Assembly: GCA_010692645.1 (NCBI GenBank)
Contig: JAAHGS010000008.1
Location: 1-45,491 of the forward strand
Length of the DNA: 45,491 bases
From: Symploca sp. SIO2E9
GTDB taxonomy: Bacteria; Cyanobacteriota; Cyanobacteriia; Cyanobacteriales; Coleofasciculaceae
Direction of reading: 5' to 3'
In this document: positions 34,892-43,434 of the stretch, piece by piece
Layout of the letters: each line of letters starts with the position of its first letter
How positions within the stretch are numbered: the first letter of the stretch is position 1
Made by a program: the position numbers and the translations under genes
The notes under the pieces: model-generated
The model's database searches: none
Told to the model about the DNA's origin: nothing
The model's input: only the letters and a program-made list of their open reading frames with translations

Positions 34892-36367
34892 ATGATTTTG
34901 AGCTATGTCTACAAACTACGCCCTTCTGGCAGTCAGTCTGCCAAGATGGATTTGTGGCTCAACATGTTGCGAAGTCATTACAATTGGTGCTTATCTGACC
35001 GCATTCAAACCTACCACCAGCAATTCCTACAAGGAGACTATTGCCATTTAAGGAGTAAAGCCGAAGCTTGTCCTTTAACTTGTTGCGTAGTTAAAAATGG
35101 TGCGACGGGAAACCCTTGGCAAAATAGCGGCAAAAAACGCAATGCTGGCACTATTCAAGATGCAGCATTAGTGGAACTAAAGGCAGCTCGTCCTTGGTAT
35201 AAGTCAATAGACTCAGATGTTTTGCAGCGTAATCTTGCTAGACTAAATATCGCCTATCAAAACTTCTTCAATGGGCGCGGTTTTCCCGCTTTTAAGAACC
35301 GTAGCAACTTTCGTTCTTTTGAGTACAAGCCCAAGGGAGTTAAGCTGATGGGAAACAAGGTGTATCTACCTAAAATCGGCTGGATGCGCTTCTTTAATTC
35401 CCGCTCAATACCTGATGGTTTTGCAGCCAAAAGTGTAACCATCCGCAAGAAGACTGACGGCTGGTTTATGTCGGTGCGACTTGAAGATCAATCAGTGCCA
35501 AAGTTATTGGCTCTACCAATCTCCAAGATCAAGACCGCCATCGGTTTAGATCTGGGGTTGAGCAAGCTGGTACATTGTTCTGATGGCAGCGATATTGCTA
35601 ATCCCAGGTTTGCCACCAACAAGACCACCAAGCGCCTGCTGAAAATTAGACAAAGACGTTTGAGCCGCACCAAGCGCGGAAGCCGAAATCGCAAAAAACA
35701 AGCTGTGCGAATCGCTTCGCTGCACGGACAAATCGCCAATCGTAGAAACGCTTATCAATGGTTTGTTGCCCACAAAGTAGTCAAAAAGGCTGATGCCGTG
35801 GTGGTCGAAGACCTCAACATTAGAGGCATGAGCAAGCGGTGTCAGCCGAAACCAGAGGCAGGCACTGGGCGCTTTCTTCCTAATGGCGCTGCGGCAAAGC
35901 GTGGTCTCAATCGTTCGATTTTAGATGCCTCCTGGGGGAATTTGATTGCCAAAATTGAGTACGTGGCTGAGAAGTCTCGAAAGGTTTTGCTCAAAGTTAA
36001 CCCTAGGCACACTTCTGTAACCTGTAGTGCTTGCGGTTTTGTTGATAAGACTAGTCGCGTTCGTGAGCGGTTCATTTGTAGCAATTGCGGTCATTTCGAT
36101 CATGCCGACAAGCAAGCTGCACGCAATATTAAGCACAAAGCCGTTGTTGAGTACGGTTTAAATCTAATTAAGGTACGCCGGGACTCGGCGAAACCCAAGC
36201 AGTTAGAACTGTTTGAAACGCCCAGCGCTGAATTAACAGCGCCTCAAAGGAGACAATCCGACGCCCTTTTGGGCAATCGTCGGGTGCCTGGGAACTTGGG
36301 ACGACAATTAAACTTGTTTTCCCAGGATATATCGGATATCCCTCCGGTAGAATCCCCCTTTTTCTAA
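34892..36367 (+). CDS. tnpB: RNA-guided endonuclease TnpB, IS200/IS605 family, apparently intact
   Basis: A 491-residue TnpB. In this IS class it uses an RNA from the element's right end to cut DNA beside a short target-adjacent motif, helping the element persist. The N-terminal helical part (MILSYVYKLRPSGSQ...HYNWCLSDRIQTY) is complete. RuvC residues are Asp220 (IGLDLGLSKL), Glu306 (VVVEDLNIRGM) and Asp406 (HADKQAARNI, Gln where Asn is usual). The zinc ribbon has C378xxC381 and C396xxC399. The stop codon lies inside the right-end hairpin. No tnpA is present, so mobility would need one supplied in trans. Confidence 0.93.
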   Translation: MILSYVYKLRPSGSQSAKMDLWLNMLRSHYNWCLSDRIQTYHQQFLQGDYCHLRSKAEACPLTCCVVKNGATGNPWQNSGKKRNAGTIQDAALVELKAARPWYKSIDSDVLQRNLARLNIAYQNFFNGRGFPAFKNRSNFRSFEYKPKGVKLMGNKVYLPKIGWMRFFNSRSIPDGFAAKSVTIRKKTDGWFMSVRLEDQSVPKLLALPISKIKTAIGLDLGLSKLVHCSDGSDIANPRFATNKTTKRLLKIRQRRLSRTKRGSRNRKKQAVRIASLHGQIANRRNAYQWFVAHKVVKKADAVVVEDLNIRGMSKRCQPKPEAGTGRFLPNGAAAKRGLNRSILDASWGNLIAKIEYVAEKSRKVLLKVNPRHTSVTCSACGFVDKTSRVRERFICSNCGHFDHADKQAARNIKHKAVVEYGLNLIKVRRDSAKPKQLELFETPSAELTAPQRRQSDALLGNRRVPGNLGRQLNLFSQDISDIPPVESPFF

Positions 36368-38425: not shown

Positions 38426-39502
38426 GTTTTGTTCAAAGCCTTCGCCAAAGCTTGCAGTTTTACTGTTCTCTCACTCTCGTCTGCAGTGCTACTTAGCACA
38501 GGGATTATTGGTTATACATTGCTCAGTAATGCTCAGCCAATTGACATTGAAGAACAATTAGCGATTCCTAGTCAGAATCGATTTGAGAGGGTGCTTAGGA
38601 ATGAGGCAGACTCATTATTGCAGTTGGGAGGACAAGCGCAGCGCCGTGGTAATTTGACAGAAGCGATCGCTCACTGGTTGCAGGCACTAGAAATTTATGA
38701 AGAAATTGGCGATTTTGAGGCACTTAATTTAACCTATGATTATCTAGGGCTGACCTATGCTAGGTTAAAGGACTATAAAAAGGCTGAAGATGCCCTCAGG
38801 CGGCGCTTGGGGATGGCACGTTCTCTGCGGGATTTGCAGGGACAAATTTATGGTTTAAATAACTTGGGGACAGTGCTGCTGCAAAAGGGTGATTTTGAAG
38901 CGGCCCAAAAAACTTTTGCAGAAGCCCTAGAAATTACTCGCAGTGTTAAGAATAGGCAGGGTGAAGGGTTAACTTTGAGTAACTTGGGCTTAGCAGCATT
39001 CCAAATGGGAAAATATGCAGAGGCGATCGAGTATTATGAGGCAGCTTTAGTATTAAGACCTAGATCTGTAAATGCTCAAGGGTCAGTTAATACTCGTAAT
39101 AATATGGGAGATGCCTATCGTGCCGTCAACAGTCCGAGGAAGGCTCTAGGTTACTATCGGGCAGCGTTAATTATAGCTGAGGATAAGGGCGATCTCTCTA
39201 ATCAGTTTCGGGGACTAAGGGGTCTAGTACTATCTTATAAGGATCTACAACAGTATTCCCCAGCTCTGAAGTACCTTAACCAACTACTAGTTTTAGCGCA
39301 GGAACAGGGACATCTTAGGGCCCAATTGGTTTCGCTGCGGTTATATGCAGAGATTTATAAGACTACTGGCGACTTATTTAAAGCTAAGAATTTTTATGAA
39401 CGAGCGATCGCTTTAGCTGCTGCGATCGGAGATACTAAGGAAGAAACCTTTTTGCGTAACGATTTGGCTCAAATTATCTATGAGGGGCGAGGGATAGATT
39501 GA
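38414..39502 (+). CDS. exported tetratricopeptide-repeat protein
   Basis: A 362-residue protein with an N-terminal signal/anchor (FTVLSLSSAVLLSTGIIGYTLL, about 17-38). From about residue 60 to the end it is made of TPR units of the 40-residue class: ADSLLQLGGQAQRRGNLTEAIAHW, YDYLGLTYARLKDYKKAEDAL, NNLGTVLLQKGDFEAAQKTF, SNLGLAAFQMGKYAEAIEYY and more, about seven in all. Such domains hold protein partners, here probably in the periplasm. The start codon lies in a dispersed ATGAACC repeat. A short near-copy of its first TPR lies at 43367-43434, downstream of the NACHT/FGE pair. Confidence 0.85.
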   Translation: MNHTVLFKAFAKACSFTVLSLSSAVLLSTGIIGYTLLSNAQPIDIEEQLAIPSQNRFERVLRNEADSLLQLGGQAQRRGNLTEAIAHWLQALEIYEEIGDFEALNLTYDYLGLTYARLKDYKKAEDALRRRLGMARSLRDLQGQIYGLNNLGTVLLQKGDFEAAQKTFAEALEITRSVKNRQGEGLTLSNLGLAAFQMGKYAEAIEYYEAALVLRPRSVNAQGSVNTRNNMGDAYRAVNSPRKALGYYRAALIIAEDKGDLSNQFRGLRGLVLSYKDLQQYSPALKYLNQLLVLAQEQGHLRAQLVSLRLYAEIYKTTGDLFKAKNFYERAIALAAAIGDTKEETFLRNDLAQIIYEGRGID

Positions 39503-39756: not shown

Positions 39757-42039
39757 ATGGAAATTATTAGATTTCCTTGTTTTCCTTTTATAGATACCCT
39801 CTTATGTTATAGATACCCTCTTATGCCAAGTGCAAGATCTTTAGTGGTATTACTTACGCAGGCGCTTGCTAATGGTCTTTTCTGTTATCAGATTAACCAA
39901 TTACCTGCAATCAAAGAACTGGGCATTGACGATCCTTTCTATATCTTAGTGCTGACATTGACAGGTGCAGTACTCTTTGCCTTTGCCAATGGGCTAGACA
40001 TTAGCCCTAAGCCCAATTATATGAGGACGAACTCTAAAACTTGGCTTTGGGGCCTTGTTTTCCTACCTGTTATAGGCAATATTGCTTTGTTCGGCTTACT
40101 CAAGTTTGACTTTCAACCCCAAATCTTGCAGCCTTTGGGTCCCAACGTATCTCTGTTTTTTTGGGTTTTGGGGATACTACTGCCAACATTAATGATTTTA
40201 GGGTCACGTCGGAGAAAGCTAATATATTTAGGGCTTTTCAGTGCTGGATTTCTGGTGACTTTTAATTTGCCGTGGAAATGGCTTAAAGCTCTTATATTAG
40301 CAATTTTAACGGTAATAACGGCGCTTTTGCCTATTGTCGAAAGATTTATCAAAACTTTTCGAGAACAAGGCGAGAAAAGACTCATTCCCCTGCTGTTTGC
40401 CTCAATAGATGCCTCAGCAAAGAGCATTGTCAGTCAACTGGAAATGCTTGTCTGGGAATTGACTTCACCATTTAAGCACCAGTATTACCAACACTTGGTT
40501 TATACCTATCGTACCTATCGAACTCAGGGACTAAAAACCCCAGGTGCATTTACACCAGATTTGGATAAGGTGTTTGTGCCACTGCGAATGGCATCCAAGA
40601 GCCCAGGGCAAATATCTCCAGCAATGATTCAGAAACACGAATCTGCCAGAAAACTAGGTATCTGGGATTTTTTGGTAGAAATTCGCAAGCAATCAGCCTA
40701 TAAACGCATAGTCGTAATTGGTTCACCTGGTTCAGGAAAAACCACGCTGTTGGAGAATTTGACTCTGACTTATGCCCGAGATACCCAGCACCAACAACAT
40801 CCCCAAGCACCAAAACTTATCCCAGTACTGTTGTATCTGCGGAAGATTCGTGAAGAAATTACCAATAATCAACTGCTCGACTTGGCACAGCTAATTACAC
40901 AACGATTAAAGAGTCAAGAATCTAGTCTAAAACTTGAACCATCCCCACAATGGTTTGAGAATAAGTTAAAGCATGGGAAATGTTTGGTCATGCTGGATGG
41001 GTTGGATGAAGTGGCAGATGAAACCCAACGTCAGCAAGTCAGCAGTTGGGTAGACAAGCAGATGCGAAAATACCCTGAAACTCCTTTCATAATGACTTCT
41101 AGACCTTATGGTTACCGCAATGCTGAACTAAAACAGGTGGGAATTTCTCTAGAAGTAAAGCCATTTAATCTAGAGCAGATGGAGGAGTTTCTCCACAATT
41201 GGTATCTACAAAACGAAGTTCTACGTCAAGTACGAAAACTAGATCCAGGGGTGGAAGCAAATGCTCGAATCAAAGCAAATGATCTGATTGAGCGCATCAA
41301 AAATCATCCAACCATAGCAGCAATTGCCCTCAACCCCTTGTTGTTGACGATGATTGCTACGGTTCACGATAACCGAGGCGCACTACCAGGATCGCGACTA
41401 GAACTCTATGAGGAGATTTGTGAAGTATTACTGGTAAGGCGACAGGAGGTTAAAGGTATCGCTGATCAAATGCAACTAAAAGCAGCGCAAAAGCAATCTG
41501 TGTTGCGAGTATTGGCGCTGGAGTTAATGAAACGGAAAACTCGTGAATTTACCCTAGCTGTTGCCCAAGATATTGAAGACAAAATGAAGGCAGTGGCAGG
41601 TAATAGAGCCAATCCTCAGGAGTTTCTGAAGCACATTGAGCAAGTCTGTGGGTTGTTAGTAGAAAGGGATGTCGGCGTTTACGAATTTGCTCATCTGAGT
41701 TTTCAGGAGTATTTAACAGCAGTTGAGGTGAAGGAAACTAACCAAGAACAGATTTTAATTGATAATATTAACAATTCCTGGTGGCATGAAACCATCCGTC
41801 TCTATGCAGCGAGAAGTGATACTACTAAATTGATTCGTGCTGCCCTGGAAAATCCCAAGATTGCATCTTTAACCCTTGCCTATGATTGCCTAGAAGAAGG
41901 CAATAGTGTTGATCCAGTAGTAAGGCAGCAGCTGGAAGAAAAGTTAGCAAGTGGTTTGGAATCGACTGAGCCAGAAATTGCAAAATTGGCAGCACAGGTA
42001 AAGTTATCCCGACGATTGAAATATGCTTCTGCGAATTGA
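39757..42039 (+). CDS. membrane NACHT-domain NTPase
   Basis: A 760-residue STAND NTPase. The first ~205 residues hold about five membrane helices. A linker leads to the NACHT domain: Walker A VVIGSPGSGKTTLLE (about 320-334), Walker B CLVMLDGLDEVAD (about 409-421), sensor IMTSRPYGYRN, then the helical part PLLLTMIATVHDNRG and the FAHLSFQEYLTA motif. NACHT proteins work as switch-like sensors, and bacterial ones include antiphage (bNACHT/Avs-like) systems. An alternative ATG is 39823 (MPSARSLVV), at the end of a 19 bp tandem repeat; 39757 has the better ribosome site. The FGE-like gene overlaps its end by 17 bp. Confidence 0.9.
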   Translation: MEIIRFPCFPFIDTLLCYRYPLMPSARSLVVLLTQALANGLFCYQINQLPAIKELGIDDPFYILVLTLTGAVLFAFANGLDISPKPNYMRTNSKTWLWGLVFLPVIGNIALFGLLKFDFQPQILQPLGPNVSLFFWVLGILLPTLMILGSRRRKLIYLGLFSAGFLVTFNLPWKWLKALILAILTVITALLPIVERFIKTFREQGEKRLIPLLFASIDASAKSIVSQLEMLVWELTSPFKHQYYQHLVYTYRTYRTQGLKTPGAFTPDLDKVFVPLRMASKSPGQISPAMIQKHESARKLGIWDFLVEIRKQSAYKRIVVIGSPGSGKTTLLENLTLTYARDTQHQQHPQAPKLIPVLLYLRKIREEITNNQLLDLAQLITQRLKSQESSLKLEPSPQWFENKLKHGKCLVMLDGLDEVADETQRQQVSSWVDKQMRKYPETPFIMTSRPYGYRNAELKQVGISLEVKPFNLEQMEEFLHNWYLQNEVLRQVRKLDPGVEANARIKANDLIERIKNHPTIAAIALNPLLLTMIATVHDNRGALPGSRLELYEEICEVLLVRRQEVKGIADQMQLKAAQKQSVLRVLALELMKRKTREFTLAVAQDIEDKMKAVAGNRANPQEFLKHIEQVCGLLVERDVGVYEFAHLSFQEYLTAVEVKETNQEQILIDNINNSWWHETIRLYAARSDTTKLIRAALENPKIASLTLAYDCLEEGNSVDPVVRQQLEEKLASGLESTEPEIAKLAAQVKLSRRLKYASAN
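39788..39825. repeat. perfect 19 bp tandem duplication at the NACHT gene start
   Basis: TTATAGATACCCTCTTATG occurs twice without a spacer. Each copy ends in ATG. Only the second ATG (39823) is in frame with the NACHT domain, because 19 is not a multiple of three. Confidence 0.85.
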
Positions 42040-43318
42040 TGAGAATCGAGAAATTGACACTAGCTATATAAACTGCGCCGAGTATCAACTTTTTATTGAT
42101 GAAAAGCTAAAAGTTGGTGAATATCGCCAGCCTCCTCATTGGACGACCAGTAGATTTGCACCTGGAGATGCCAATAAGCCGATTACTGGAGTAAAAGCCA
42201 GTGATGCCGAGGAATTTTGTGAATGGTTAACTCAGCGCTATCCTGCACCAGGATTTAAATACAGACTGCCTACTTTAACTGAAGCACAAGAGTATACAGC
42301 TAAAGAAAAACAAATTGGATGCTGGTGTAATGATGGAGAAAAGAAAGCGATTACAGAAATAGAAGTCGAAACAGTTCAACGGCAGCATTGGCAAGCCATT
42401 TTACATGATAGCCTCGACAAGGATCTAGCTCGTGCACGTGATTTAGTTCGTAAGCTGGTTCGTAATCATGCCAGATCATTGAAAAAAGATCTTAATGGTG
42501 TCTATAACTGTGTCAGTGAAGGTAAGCTATTTTTTTCTCATGTACTTACTGGTAGCTTTGCCTATGATTTTGTCAATGATCTTGATTTTGCTATTAACCG
42601 TAGCTATGAACTTACTCGTGCCCGTTATCGTGTCCGTAGACTTGCTGGGAACTACAACCTTAATCTTGCCAACGCCATGCTGGTTGCCCTTGGAATGCTT
42701 CTCCTCATGACTCTTATACTCACAGTAATACTCACAGTAATCTTTTTATTCACTTTATATACTAGGATGATCTTTCAGATTTGGAATGATATTACCATTC
42801 CAGATAAGACTTTAATTGGAATTTCTCTTATTTTTTCTCTTGTTTTTTTTGTAGTTTTTTCTCTTAGATTTTTTGATTCTATTTATAAATTCAACCAAAA
42901 TTTATTAACTCACAAAAATAATCCTCAATATACATTTCCCAGTACTGATGTTTTTGTACGTGATTTAACTTGTATTTATGACCTTGCCCTTGGACTTCAA
43001 AAGAGTCCGAACCGCACCTTTATTATTAACAATAATAGTACGGATATTGCTAAATTTAAAACTATTCGTTCTTACCTGTTGTTATGTTATATACTCTGGG
43101 ATTTGCTATCAAATATTTATGAAAAAACTCCTAGCGATCGCAGGATATTACAAGCCCGAAATCTAACTCGTGAAGACTGCGAAAATTTTCAATTAGAGTA
43201 TGCAACTAAAAGAGATGATACTTGGAATATTTATGCATCATTTCTTTTGATAGATGAACGACGTGAGGGCAAGATGCCAGCTTGGGAAGGAATTAGGATT
43301 GTTAGAGAGAGAATATAA
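42023..43318 (+). CDS. formylglycine-generating-enzyme-like (SUMF1) membrane protein
   Basis: A 431-residue protein. The N-terminal ~100 residues resemble the start of an FGE/SUMF1 domain: YINCAEYQLFIDEK, GVKASDAEEFCEWLTQRYP, YRLPTLTEAQEYTA. The normal continuation is then replaced by a charged region and two to three membrane helices (about 225-290), with the closing AWEGIRIVRERI at the very end. The two Cys of aerobic FGE are not evident, so catalysis is doubtful. In many cyanobacteria this domain is fused behind NACHT. Here it starts 17 bp before the NACHT stop in another frame, so it is either a coupled partner or a fusion split by a frameshift. Confidence 0.7.
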   Translation: MLLRIDENREIDTSYINCAEYQLFIDEKLKVGEYRQPPHWTTSRFAPGDANKPITGVKASDAEEFCEWLTQRYPAPGFKYRLPTLTEAQEYTAKEKQIGCWCNDGEKKAITEIEVETVQRQHWQAILHDSLDKDLARARDLVRKLVRNHARSLKKDLNGVYNCVSEGKLFFSHVLTGSFAYDFVNDLDFAINRSYELTRARYRVRRLAGNYNLNLANAMLVALGMLLLMTLILTVILTVIFLFTLYTRMIFQIWNDITIPDKTLIGISLIFSLVFFVVFSLRFFDSIYKFNQNLLTHKNNPQYTFPSTDVFVRDLTCIYDLALGLQKSPNRTFIINNNSTDIAKFKTIRSYLLLCYILWDLLSNIYEKTPSDRRILQARNLTREDCENFQLEYATKRDDTWNIYASFLLIDERREGKMPAWEGIRIVRERI

Positions 43319-43320
43319 GA

Positions 43321-43354
43321 ATAAGTAATAAGTAATAAGTAATAAGTAATAAGT
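43321..43354. repeat. AATAAGT heptamer repeat (STRR)
   Basis: Four to five tandem copies of AATAAGT start directly after the FGE-like stop codon. This is the reverse complement of the array at 17655-17691. Confidence 0.8.
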
Positions 43355-43366
43355 GTAAAAAGAATA

Positions 43367-43434
43367 GGCAGAATTATTATTGCAGTTGGGAGGGTAGGGG
43401 CAGCGCCGTGGTAATTTGGTAAAAGCGATCGCTG
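43367..43434 (+). pseudogene. fragment duplicated from the TPR gene
   Basis: About 68 bp closely resembling 38604-38671 inside the TPR gene. Shared blocks are TTATTGCAGTTGGGAGG, GCAGCGCCGTGGTAATTTG and AAGCGATCGCT. The corresponding protein segment is LLQLGGQAQRRGNLTEAIA. In this copy the frame is broken by a TAG. It is a relic of a second TPR gene or of a local duplication spanning the NACHT/FGE genes. Confidence 0.7.

What the first reader, a model, noticed from the sequence alone, without database searches (positions are those of the whole stretch)
39757..43318. Membrane NACHT NTPase and FGE-like protein: coupled pair or split fusion
The FGE-like frame begins 17 bp before the NACHT stop, shifted by +1, and an in-frame TGA at 42017-42019 limits any upstream extension. 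In many cyanobacteria these domains form one protein, and the sequence around the junction (RRLKY then LLRIDENREIDTSYI) reads smoothly across the shift. This could be a recent indel, a sequencing error, programmed frameshifting, or real separation with translational coupling. Both proteins carry membrane helices, which is unusual for NLR-like immune proteins.
Basis: partly seen in the sequence, partly recalled or inferred. Interest (0 to 1): 0.62.

Follow-up and report, generated by a model that had tools for sequence, protein, structure and literature searches.

The report
Ancient split of a membrane NACHT-lectin gene
A cyanobacterial immune-receptor-like protein that is one chain in most relatives is made here as two overlapping genes, a separation that is old, shared with relatives and probably undone at least once, which suggests that switch and sensor can work as two partners.

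Summary
In detail: a 760-codon membrane NACHT gene (39757-42039) overlaps a 431-codon FGE-like gene (42023-43318) by 17 nt, in the +1 frame. It is not a sequencing error or a recent break: another genome of the same genus has it with a 14-nt overlap, one codon different. Of 54 distinct loci read, 39 are one fused gene and 15 are two genes; all 15 second genes start with ATG at the junction. The splits fall in two well-supported clades. In the window's clade the cut lies after the last NACHT helix. In the other it lies before that helix, makes an ATGA overlap and carries the helix to the FGE-like protein, the mark of a broken fusion. Two fused rows there carry one extra, frame-restoring base. 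Two relatives in the window's clade have gaps that no single frameshift bridges. Both proteins are under purifying selection, apart from the FGE insert. Best reading: ancient fission with translational coupling, giving a two-subunit NLR-like receptor. The FGE-like protein is itself odd: its lectin/FGE fold is interrupted by a fast-evolving helical insert, a 12-nt minisatellite in a relative. Function (defence) is inferred, not shown.

The parts
39757..42039 (+). NACHT ORF (760 aa as called; probable true start ATG 39823, 738 aa)
   Evidence: start choice from comparison with L047 of the same genus
39940..40338 (+). N-terminal membrane region: four hydrophobic segments (ORF residues 62-80, 97-115, 131-149, 176-194)
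   Evidence: hydropathy scan; helices in the model
40705..41202 (+). NACHT NTPase domain; Walker A GSPGSGKT 40720-40743, Walker B LVMLDGLDE 40984-41010
   Evidence: Pfam PF05729 residues 317-482; motifs read by eye in the sequence
41971..42033 (+). Last helix of the NACHT chain (LAAQVKLSRRLKY...): kept by NACHT in this clade, carried by the FGE-like protein in the other split clade
   Evidence: model helix 717-737; N tails and F heads of 15 split loci
42023..42039 (+). 17-nt overlap: ATG of the FGE-like gene to TGA of NACHT
42023..43318 (+). FGE-like ORF, 431 aa
42023..42355 (+). N-terminal part of the FGE / C-type-lectin fold (residues 1-111)
   Evidence: Pfam over residues 16-106, model, VIA-align matches to FGE and relatives
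42335..43057 (+). Fast-evolving helical insert (residues 105-345) with two hydrophobic segments at 42695-42751 and 42809-42865; short diverged 12-nt repeats at 42716-42741 and 42822-42866
   Evidence: omega 0.72-0.90; period-4 signal; tandem repeats, low scores; hydropathy
43058..43315 (+). Constrained C-terminal part ending in the closing strand (PAWEGIRIVRERI)
   Evidence: omega 0.22; model strand 427-430

Best explanation
An ancestral single-chain membrane NACHT/FGE-like (lectin-fold) receptor was broken at its interdomain linker by a small indel beside an ATG just upstream of the new stop (shown by comparison; direction of change inferred). The two products are kept as separate subunits, NACHT first and FGE-like second, the second probably translated by ribosomes that finish the first (overlap shown, coupling inferred). 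The pair most likely works like a tripartite STAND/NLR receptor cut before its sensor: the FGE-like protein senses a ligand, binds the NACHT superhelix in trans, the NACHT NTPase oligomerises, and the membrane N-terminus acts at or perturbs the membrane (all inferred).
For: Same +1 arrangement in L047, same genus, overlap 14 vs 17 nt, one codon apart. Of 54 distinct loci 39 are fused and 15 split, and 15 of 15 split FGE ORFs begin with ATG at the junction. The tree puts the splits in two clades (100/99 and 100/100); the other 30 rows are all fused. In the second clade the FGE ORF begins with the helix that ends NACHT in fused proteins. L052 and L053 carry a frame-restoring base, and L053 keeps an in-frame Met at the old start. 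Between window and L047 omega is 0.22 for NACHT and 0.32 and 0.22 for the two FGE ends. The NACHT model matches NLRC4, NOD2 and NLRP3, best E 6e-14; the FGE model aligns to FGE-fold proteins at Z 9-12.
Against: No expression, interaction or phenotype data. No clear Shine-Dalgarno before the ATG (by eye), so coupling is inferred. Omega for the whole FGE-like gene is 0.56, with 0.72-0.90 in the insert. Fused L102 lies inside the window's clade on weak support; one origin of that clade's splits is not rejected (p 0.144), nor are two shown false. No defence-family match of weight for the pair; six neighbouring ORFs gave no defence family beyond a generic TPR model and a TnpB-type transposase that rings Cas12 models.
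Confidence: 0.77

Rival explanations
1. Programmed +1 ribosomal frameshifting in the 17-nt overlap makes a fused protein besides, or instead of, two separate ones.
For: Frame direction is the same in the 5 overlapping loci of the clade (window, L047, L103, L109, L111), and the reading resumes within a conserved stretch. Antonov et al. 2013 found that coupling and recoding can be interchangeable (PMC3711429, passages).
Against: L107 (24-nt gap, stops between) and L054 (232-nt gap) cannot be joined by one shift. No -1 heptamer in 15 of 15 split rows, and the codon before the stop varies; +1 sites were judged by eye only. An ATG is present in 15 of 15.
Confidence: 0.07
2. Sequencing or assembly error, or a recent inactivating indel.
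For: The genome is a draft of 383 contigs, and many relatives are MAGs.
Against: L047, a separate assembly, has it too; dN/dS is 0.22 just before and 0.32 just after the junction. Splits also occur in records titled complete chromosome (L051) and Microseira wollei NIES-4236 (L050).
Confidence: 0.02
3. The junction is a slow genetic switch: single-base indels toggle fused and split forms, and the toggling itself is useful (phase variation).
For: At least 7 changes between fused and split on the best tree; the clade-2 splits are not one clade (p 3e-42).
Against: No long homopolymer or short tandem repeat seen at the junction (by eye); within the window's genus both genomes are split.
Confidence: 0.06
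4. Two genes of separate origin that became neighbours, and fused later in other lineages.
For: Unrooted trees cannot tell gain from loss.
Against: The clade-2 FGE-like proteins begin with a NACHT-chain helix that fused proteins also have; the 30 rows outside the two clades are all fused.
Confidence: 0.04

Closest known systems
Bacterial NACHT (bNACHT) / STAND antiphage proteins
   Same: NACHT NTPase with Walker motifs and an NLR-like helical region; fold matches to NLRC4, NOD2 and NLRP3. The described order is effector-NACHT-sensor (PMC12169576, passages).
   Different: The sensor-position domain is a separate, overlapping gene, and the N-terminus is a membrane domain. The best NCBIfam match (EruA, 41 bits) is far below its cut-off of 1000.
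STAND NTPase proteins with C-terminal lectin-fold/FGE sensors in multicellular bacteria (Dore et al. 2024; Kaur et al. 2020)
   Same: NACHT or other STAND domain followed by a C-type-lectin-fold (FGE-type in some) domain, some with predicted membrane or periplasmic placement (PMC10907252, passages; FGS domain in cyanobacteria, PMC7159879, passages).
   Different: Split into two genes; no retroelement repeat found in the one search made; the domain carries a long helical or tetrapeptide-repeat insert.
Treponema denticola variable protein 1 (a DGR target, as recalled)
   Same: FGE-like model aligns to 2y3c, Z 11.2, 116 residues.
   Different: No repeat pair found for the C-terminal 301 bases.
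Translational-coupling frame transitions (Antonov et al. 2013)
   Same: ORF2 ATG close to the ORF1 stop in a set of homologues that includes fusions (PMC3711429, passages).
   Different: NACHT/FGE is not among the coupling clusters named in the passages read.

Membership tests
NACHT STAND NTPase | NACHT domain above curated cut-off, with Walker A and B | tested here: met
   PF05729 55.7 bits vs 26.7; GSPGSGKT and LVMLDGLDE in the sequence
NACHT STAND NTPase | NLR-like fold | tested here: met
   Foldseek vs NLRC4 E 6.1e-14, TMq 0.43; model pLDDT 79. By sequence profile no NLR chain of the PDB was found
NACHT STAND NTPase | Effector, NACHT and sensor on one chain | tested here: not met
   FGE-like part is a separate ORF
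NACHT STAND NTPase | Antiphage activity | not testable with these tools
   no phenotype data; PADLOC scan gave only weak P-loop matches
FGE / C-type lectin fold | FGE-type fold | tested here: met
   Pfam above cut-off over residues 16-106, in 6 of 8 relatives too; profile vs PDB: ToxD E 1.7e-6; VIA-align CarF 12.2, 2y3c 11.2, T. curvata FGE 9.3, 116-126 residues. Caution: unrelated helical chains reach Z about 10 in the same list, and Foldseek alone gave none at E 0.001
Formylglycine-generating enzyme | Complete FGE-sulfatase domain | tested here: not met
   match covers profile 44-138 of 255; the rest is replaced by helices
Diversity-generating retroelement target | Variable repeat matching a template repeat in the genome | tested here: inconclusive
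   only window 43020-43320 was searched in the own genome; self match only at E 0.01
Programmed-frameshift gene | Conserved shift-prone site | tested here: inconclusive
   no -1 heptamer in 15 of 15 split rows; the pre-stop codon varies; +1 sites judged by eye only
Translationally coupled pair | ORF2 start within about 20 nt of the ORF1 stop | tested here: met
   window 17 nt; 13 of 15 split rows overlap by 4-20 nt, two have gaps of 24 and 232 nt
Translationally coupled pair | Translation of ORF2 depends on ORF1 | not testable with these tools
   needs reporters

The most novel reading that the evidence does not exclude
The FGE-like subunit is a variable sensor whose lectin fold is interrupted by a 12-nt minisatellite that grows, shrinks and mutates, a repeat-slippage route to receptor diversity in place of a retroelement. 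In the window's lineage the repeats have drifted into a membrane hairpin. Splitting the gene lets this sensor be made in its own dose beside a conserved NACHT switch, and the split can be undone by one base.
Probability: 0.22. Interest if true: 0.75.

Novelty: new variant of a known kind. Interest (0 to 1): 0.5.

Why it matters
Bacterial NLR-like receptors are described as one chain with effector, switch and sensor. Here the sensor is a separate protein in two clades, cut on either side of one helix, and apparently rejoined by one base. Fused and split natural versions of one receptor are a ready test of how a NACHT switch reads its sensor, whether the contact works in trans, and what dose of sensor is needed. 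The repeat-built insert suggests a way to diversify a lectin-fold sensor without a retroelement.

Tried and rejected
Sequencing error and recent decay: rejected by L047 and by dN/dS. Programmed frameshift: no -1 heptamer, two gapped relatives; +1 slippage in the window itself is not excluded. DGR diversification: the own-genome search with window 43020-43320 found only itself. The reverse transcriptase family PF00078 has 16 matches in the genome, none inside the window; I did not class them. Membrane N-terminus as cause of the split: 11 of 15 split and 5 of 29 fused rows with complete 5' ends have two or more segments, but independent pairs on the tree do not support a link. Foldseek alone on the FGE-like model found nothing at E 0.001; the helical insert's CorA-like matches I take as generic helix matches. 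PADLOC: weak P-loop hits only for NACHT, none for the FGE-like protein. Conserved neighbourhood: the three upstream genes match in L047 and in no other of the 66 entries, most of which hold only short flanks, so this is a weak test. Literature: in eight searches I saw no paper that describes a split NACHT/FGE pair or the 12-nt repeat insert; I saw search listings and abstract starts, and passages of four papers, no whole text; most subscription papers are not held.

Rows not examined: weaker matches that received no locus were not read. L003 and L040 gave no junction. Three short rows (L116, L118, L083) were left out of the tree but are in the 54. The insert was scored for period in 36 of 54 rows; 14 had no anchors and 4 no usable centre. 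Tandem Repeats Finder was run on the window and L051 only. For the structure jobs the alignments held the window and 39 of 46 available FGE parts, and the window and 37 of 49 available NACHT parts.
Full report
What is there. The window holds a NACHT gene (39757-42039) and an FGE-like gene (42023-43318) on the + strand, overlapping by 17 nt with the second in the +1 frame. NACHT is clear by Pfam; FGE-sulfatase is just above its cut-off and covers residues 16-106 only. The NACHT protein has four hydrophobic segments before the NTPase, the FGE-like protein two in its middle. The window lies in a draft genome of 7.75 Mb in 383 contigs.

Survey of relatives. The FGE-like protein was searched in 194 genomes of relatives (23 with a match at E 1e-10), in 388 genomes of the class (28 with a match at E 1e-12; some genomes are in both sets) and in genome contigs (16 loci). 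I read the junction in the loci given, then re-read 66 entries, most with longer flanks. Twelve had a junction identical to another entry: 11 were the same place twice, one (L031) a different genome. That leaves 54 distinct loci including the window: 39 fused and 15 split. Weaker matches that received no locus were not examined.

Three junction forms. Fused genes read, with variation, LES-x-D-P-x-I-F-K-L-A-A-E-V-K-L-S-R-R-L-x-x-L-L-R-I-D in one frame. In the window's group the NACHT chain ends at or just after RRLK(Y/N) and the FGE-like ORF starts with ATG there: overlap 17 nt (window), 14 (L047), 20 (L103, L109, L111), a 24-nt gap (L107) and a 232-nt gap (L054). In the second group (L048-L051, L055, L112, L119, L125) the cut is about 20 codons upstream, with a 4-nt overlap (ATGA), and the FGE-like protein begins with MTERFxLAANVLLSRRL or a variant of it, which matches the last NACHT-chain helix of the fused forms. 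So the two cuts lie on either side of one helix.

History. On a tree of 51 rows (15 split, 36 fused) the window's group forms a clade of 8 (7 split, fused L102; support 100/99), and the second group a clade of 13 (8 split; 5 fused: L052, L053, L123, L129, L135; 100/100); the other 30 rows are fused. At least 7 changes between fused and split are needed on the best tree, 6 without L102. Holding the window-group splits together is not rejected (p 0.144), so one event there is possible. Holding the second-group splits together is rejected (p 3e-42; without L125 6e-16); the groups were named after seeing the tree. In the junction DNA the second-group splits are one base short of the fused spacing of L129 and L135, and L052 and L053 have one extra base a few positions upstream that restores a single frame. 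L053 still reads LMTEGF, with a Met where its split neighbours start. I read this as re-fusion; the tree is unrooted, so direction is inferred. L123 is fused with a different spacing.

Not error, not decay. Window and L047 are separate genomes with the same frame relation. Between them omega is 0.22 for NACHT (0.30 in its membrane part), 0.56 for the whole FGE-like gene, made up of 0.32 for its N-terminal part, 0.22 for its C-terminal part and 0.72, 0.90 and 0.86 for three stretches of the insert; three neighbouring genes give 0.04-0.16 (Nei-Gojobori). Both proteins are therefore maintained, the insert loosely or under change. Splits also occur in a record titled complete chromosome (Microcoleus vaginatus HSN003, L051) and in Microseira wollei NIES-4236 (L050).

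Frameshift or coupling. None of 15 split rows has an in-frame -1 slippery heptamer in the last 14 codons of NACHT. L107 and L054 cannot be joined by one shift. All 15 FGE ORFs start with ATG at the junction; among 39 fused rows only L053 has a Met at either split point (my reading of the printout). The conserved I-D pair in the FGE frame tends to make an out-of-frame stop (T|GA) just after the overlap, which explains the steady stop position without a recoding signal. Translational coupling is the natural reading but is not shown.

The FGE-like protein. The AlphaFold model (mean pLDDT 74.8) has strands and helices in residues 1-111, helices from 117 to 414 (low confidence in 173-190, 204-219 and 254-306), and a final strand at 427-430. 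VIA-align rows for FGE-fold proteins run from residue 1 to 430 or 431 of the model: CarF Z 12.2, Treponema variable protein 11.2, ToxD 10.8, T. curvata FGE 9.3, with 116-126 residues aligned; helical chains such as CorA reach similar Z by the insert, and Foldseek alone had nothing at E 0.001. The profile of the family finds ToxD by sequence (E 1.7e-6). One fused relative, L115, has in addition a complete FGE-sulfatase domain (225 bits). In several relatives the insert is a tetrapeptide array, (D/N)L(Y/N)R (printed); in L051 it comes from a 12-nt tandem repeat of 37.2 copies at 90% match. Of 36 rows scored, a period-4 signal of z 7.9 to 20.2 is seen in 11 (L050-L055, L103, L112, L119, L122, L123); L049 also scores high but holds a masked run that inflates it. 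The window has z 5.2, L047 3.2, and L058-L061 0.3 to 2.1. In 13 close pairs that I chose, some sharing rows, the insert was less alike than the NACHT region in 11 (two of them by 3 points or less) and equal in 2, and differed in length in 7; the C-terminal part was also less alike in several. In the window two low-scoring 12-nt arrays of 2.2 and 3.8 copies coincide with the two hydrophobic segments. That the membrane hairpin grew from such repeats is a suggestion.

Mechanism. The NACHT model (pLDDT 79) matches NLRC4, NOD2 and NLRP3. Described bacterial NACHT proteins have effector, NACHT and sensor in that order (PMC12169576, passages), and lectin-fold/FGE domains on STAND proteins are proposed as sensors but untested (PMC10907252, passages). 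By position the FGE-like protein is the sensor and the membrane region the effector. In the second split clade the sensor protein carries a helix that belongs to the NACHT chain in fused forms, which suggests contact between the two proteins. Defence as the purpose is inference: no phenotype, no strong PADLOC match for the pair, no other defence system among six neighbours.

Surroundings. Three upstream genes are shared with L047. The upstream TPR gene has homologues in 15 of 20 genomes searched, own and L047's included. A piece of the TPR gene is repeated just after the FGE-like gene in both, which suggests that the pair came in beside it.

Noticed in passing
L051:6388-6834: 12-nt tandem repeat, 37 copies, coding DLYR/DLNR tetrapeptides inside the FGE-like domain of Microcoleus vaginatus; similar protein arrays in other relatives.
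   Followed up: partly
window 43362-43433 (source about 38599-38671); L047:7366-7521: A fragment of the interior of the upstream TPR gene is repeated directly after the FGE-like gene in both genomes, like a scar of insertion or duplication.
   Followed up: partly
window 39788-39825: 19-nt tandem duplication (TTATAGATACCCTCTTATG) ending at the probable NACHT start; L047 has one copy.
   Followed up: partly
L118 (own genome contig C67): A second, fused NACHT/FGE-type remnant in the same genome, with most of the NACHT domain missing.
   Followed up: partly
window 43315-43354: Array of about six 7-nt units (ATAAGTA) right at the end of the FGE-like gene.
   Followed up: no
window 34892-36367: TnpB/IS605-type transposase (Pfam OrfB_IS605 and Cas12f1-like TNB) a few kb upstream.
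   Followed up: partly
L115:712-1938 (-): Fused relative that carries a second, complete FGE-sulfatase domain (225 bits) after the interrupted one.
   Followed up: no
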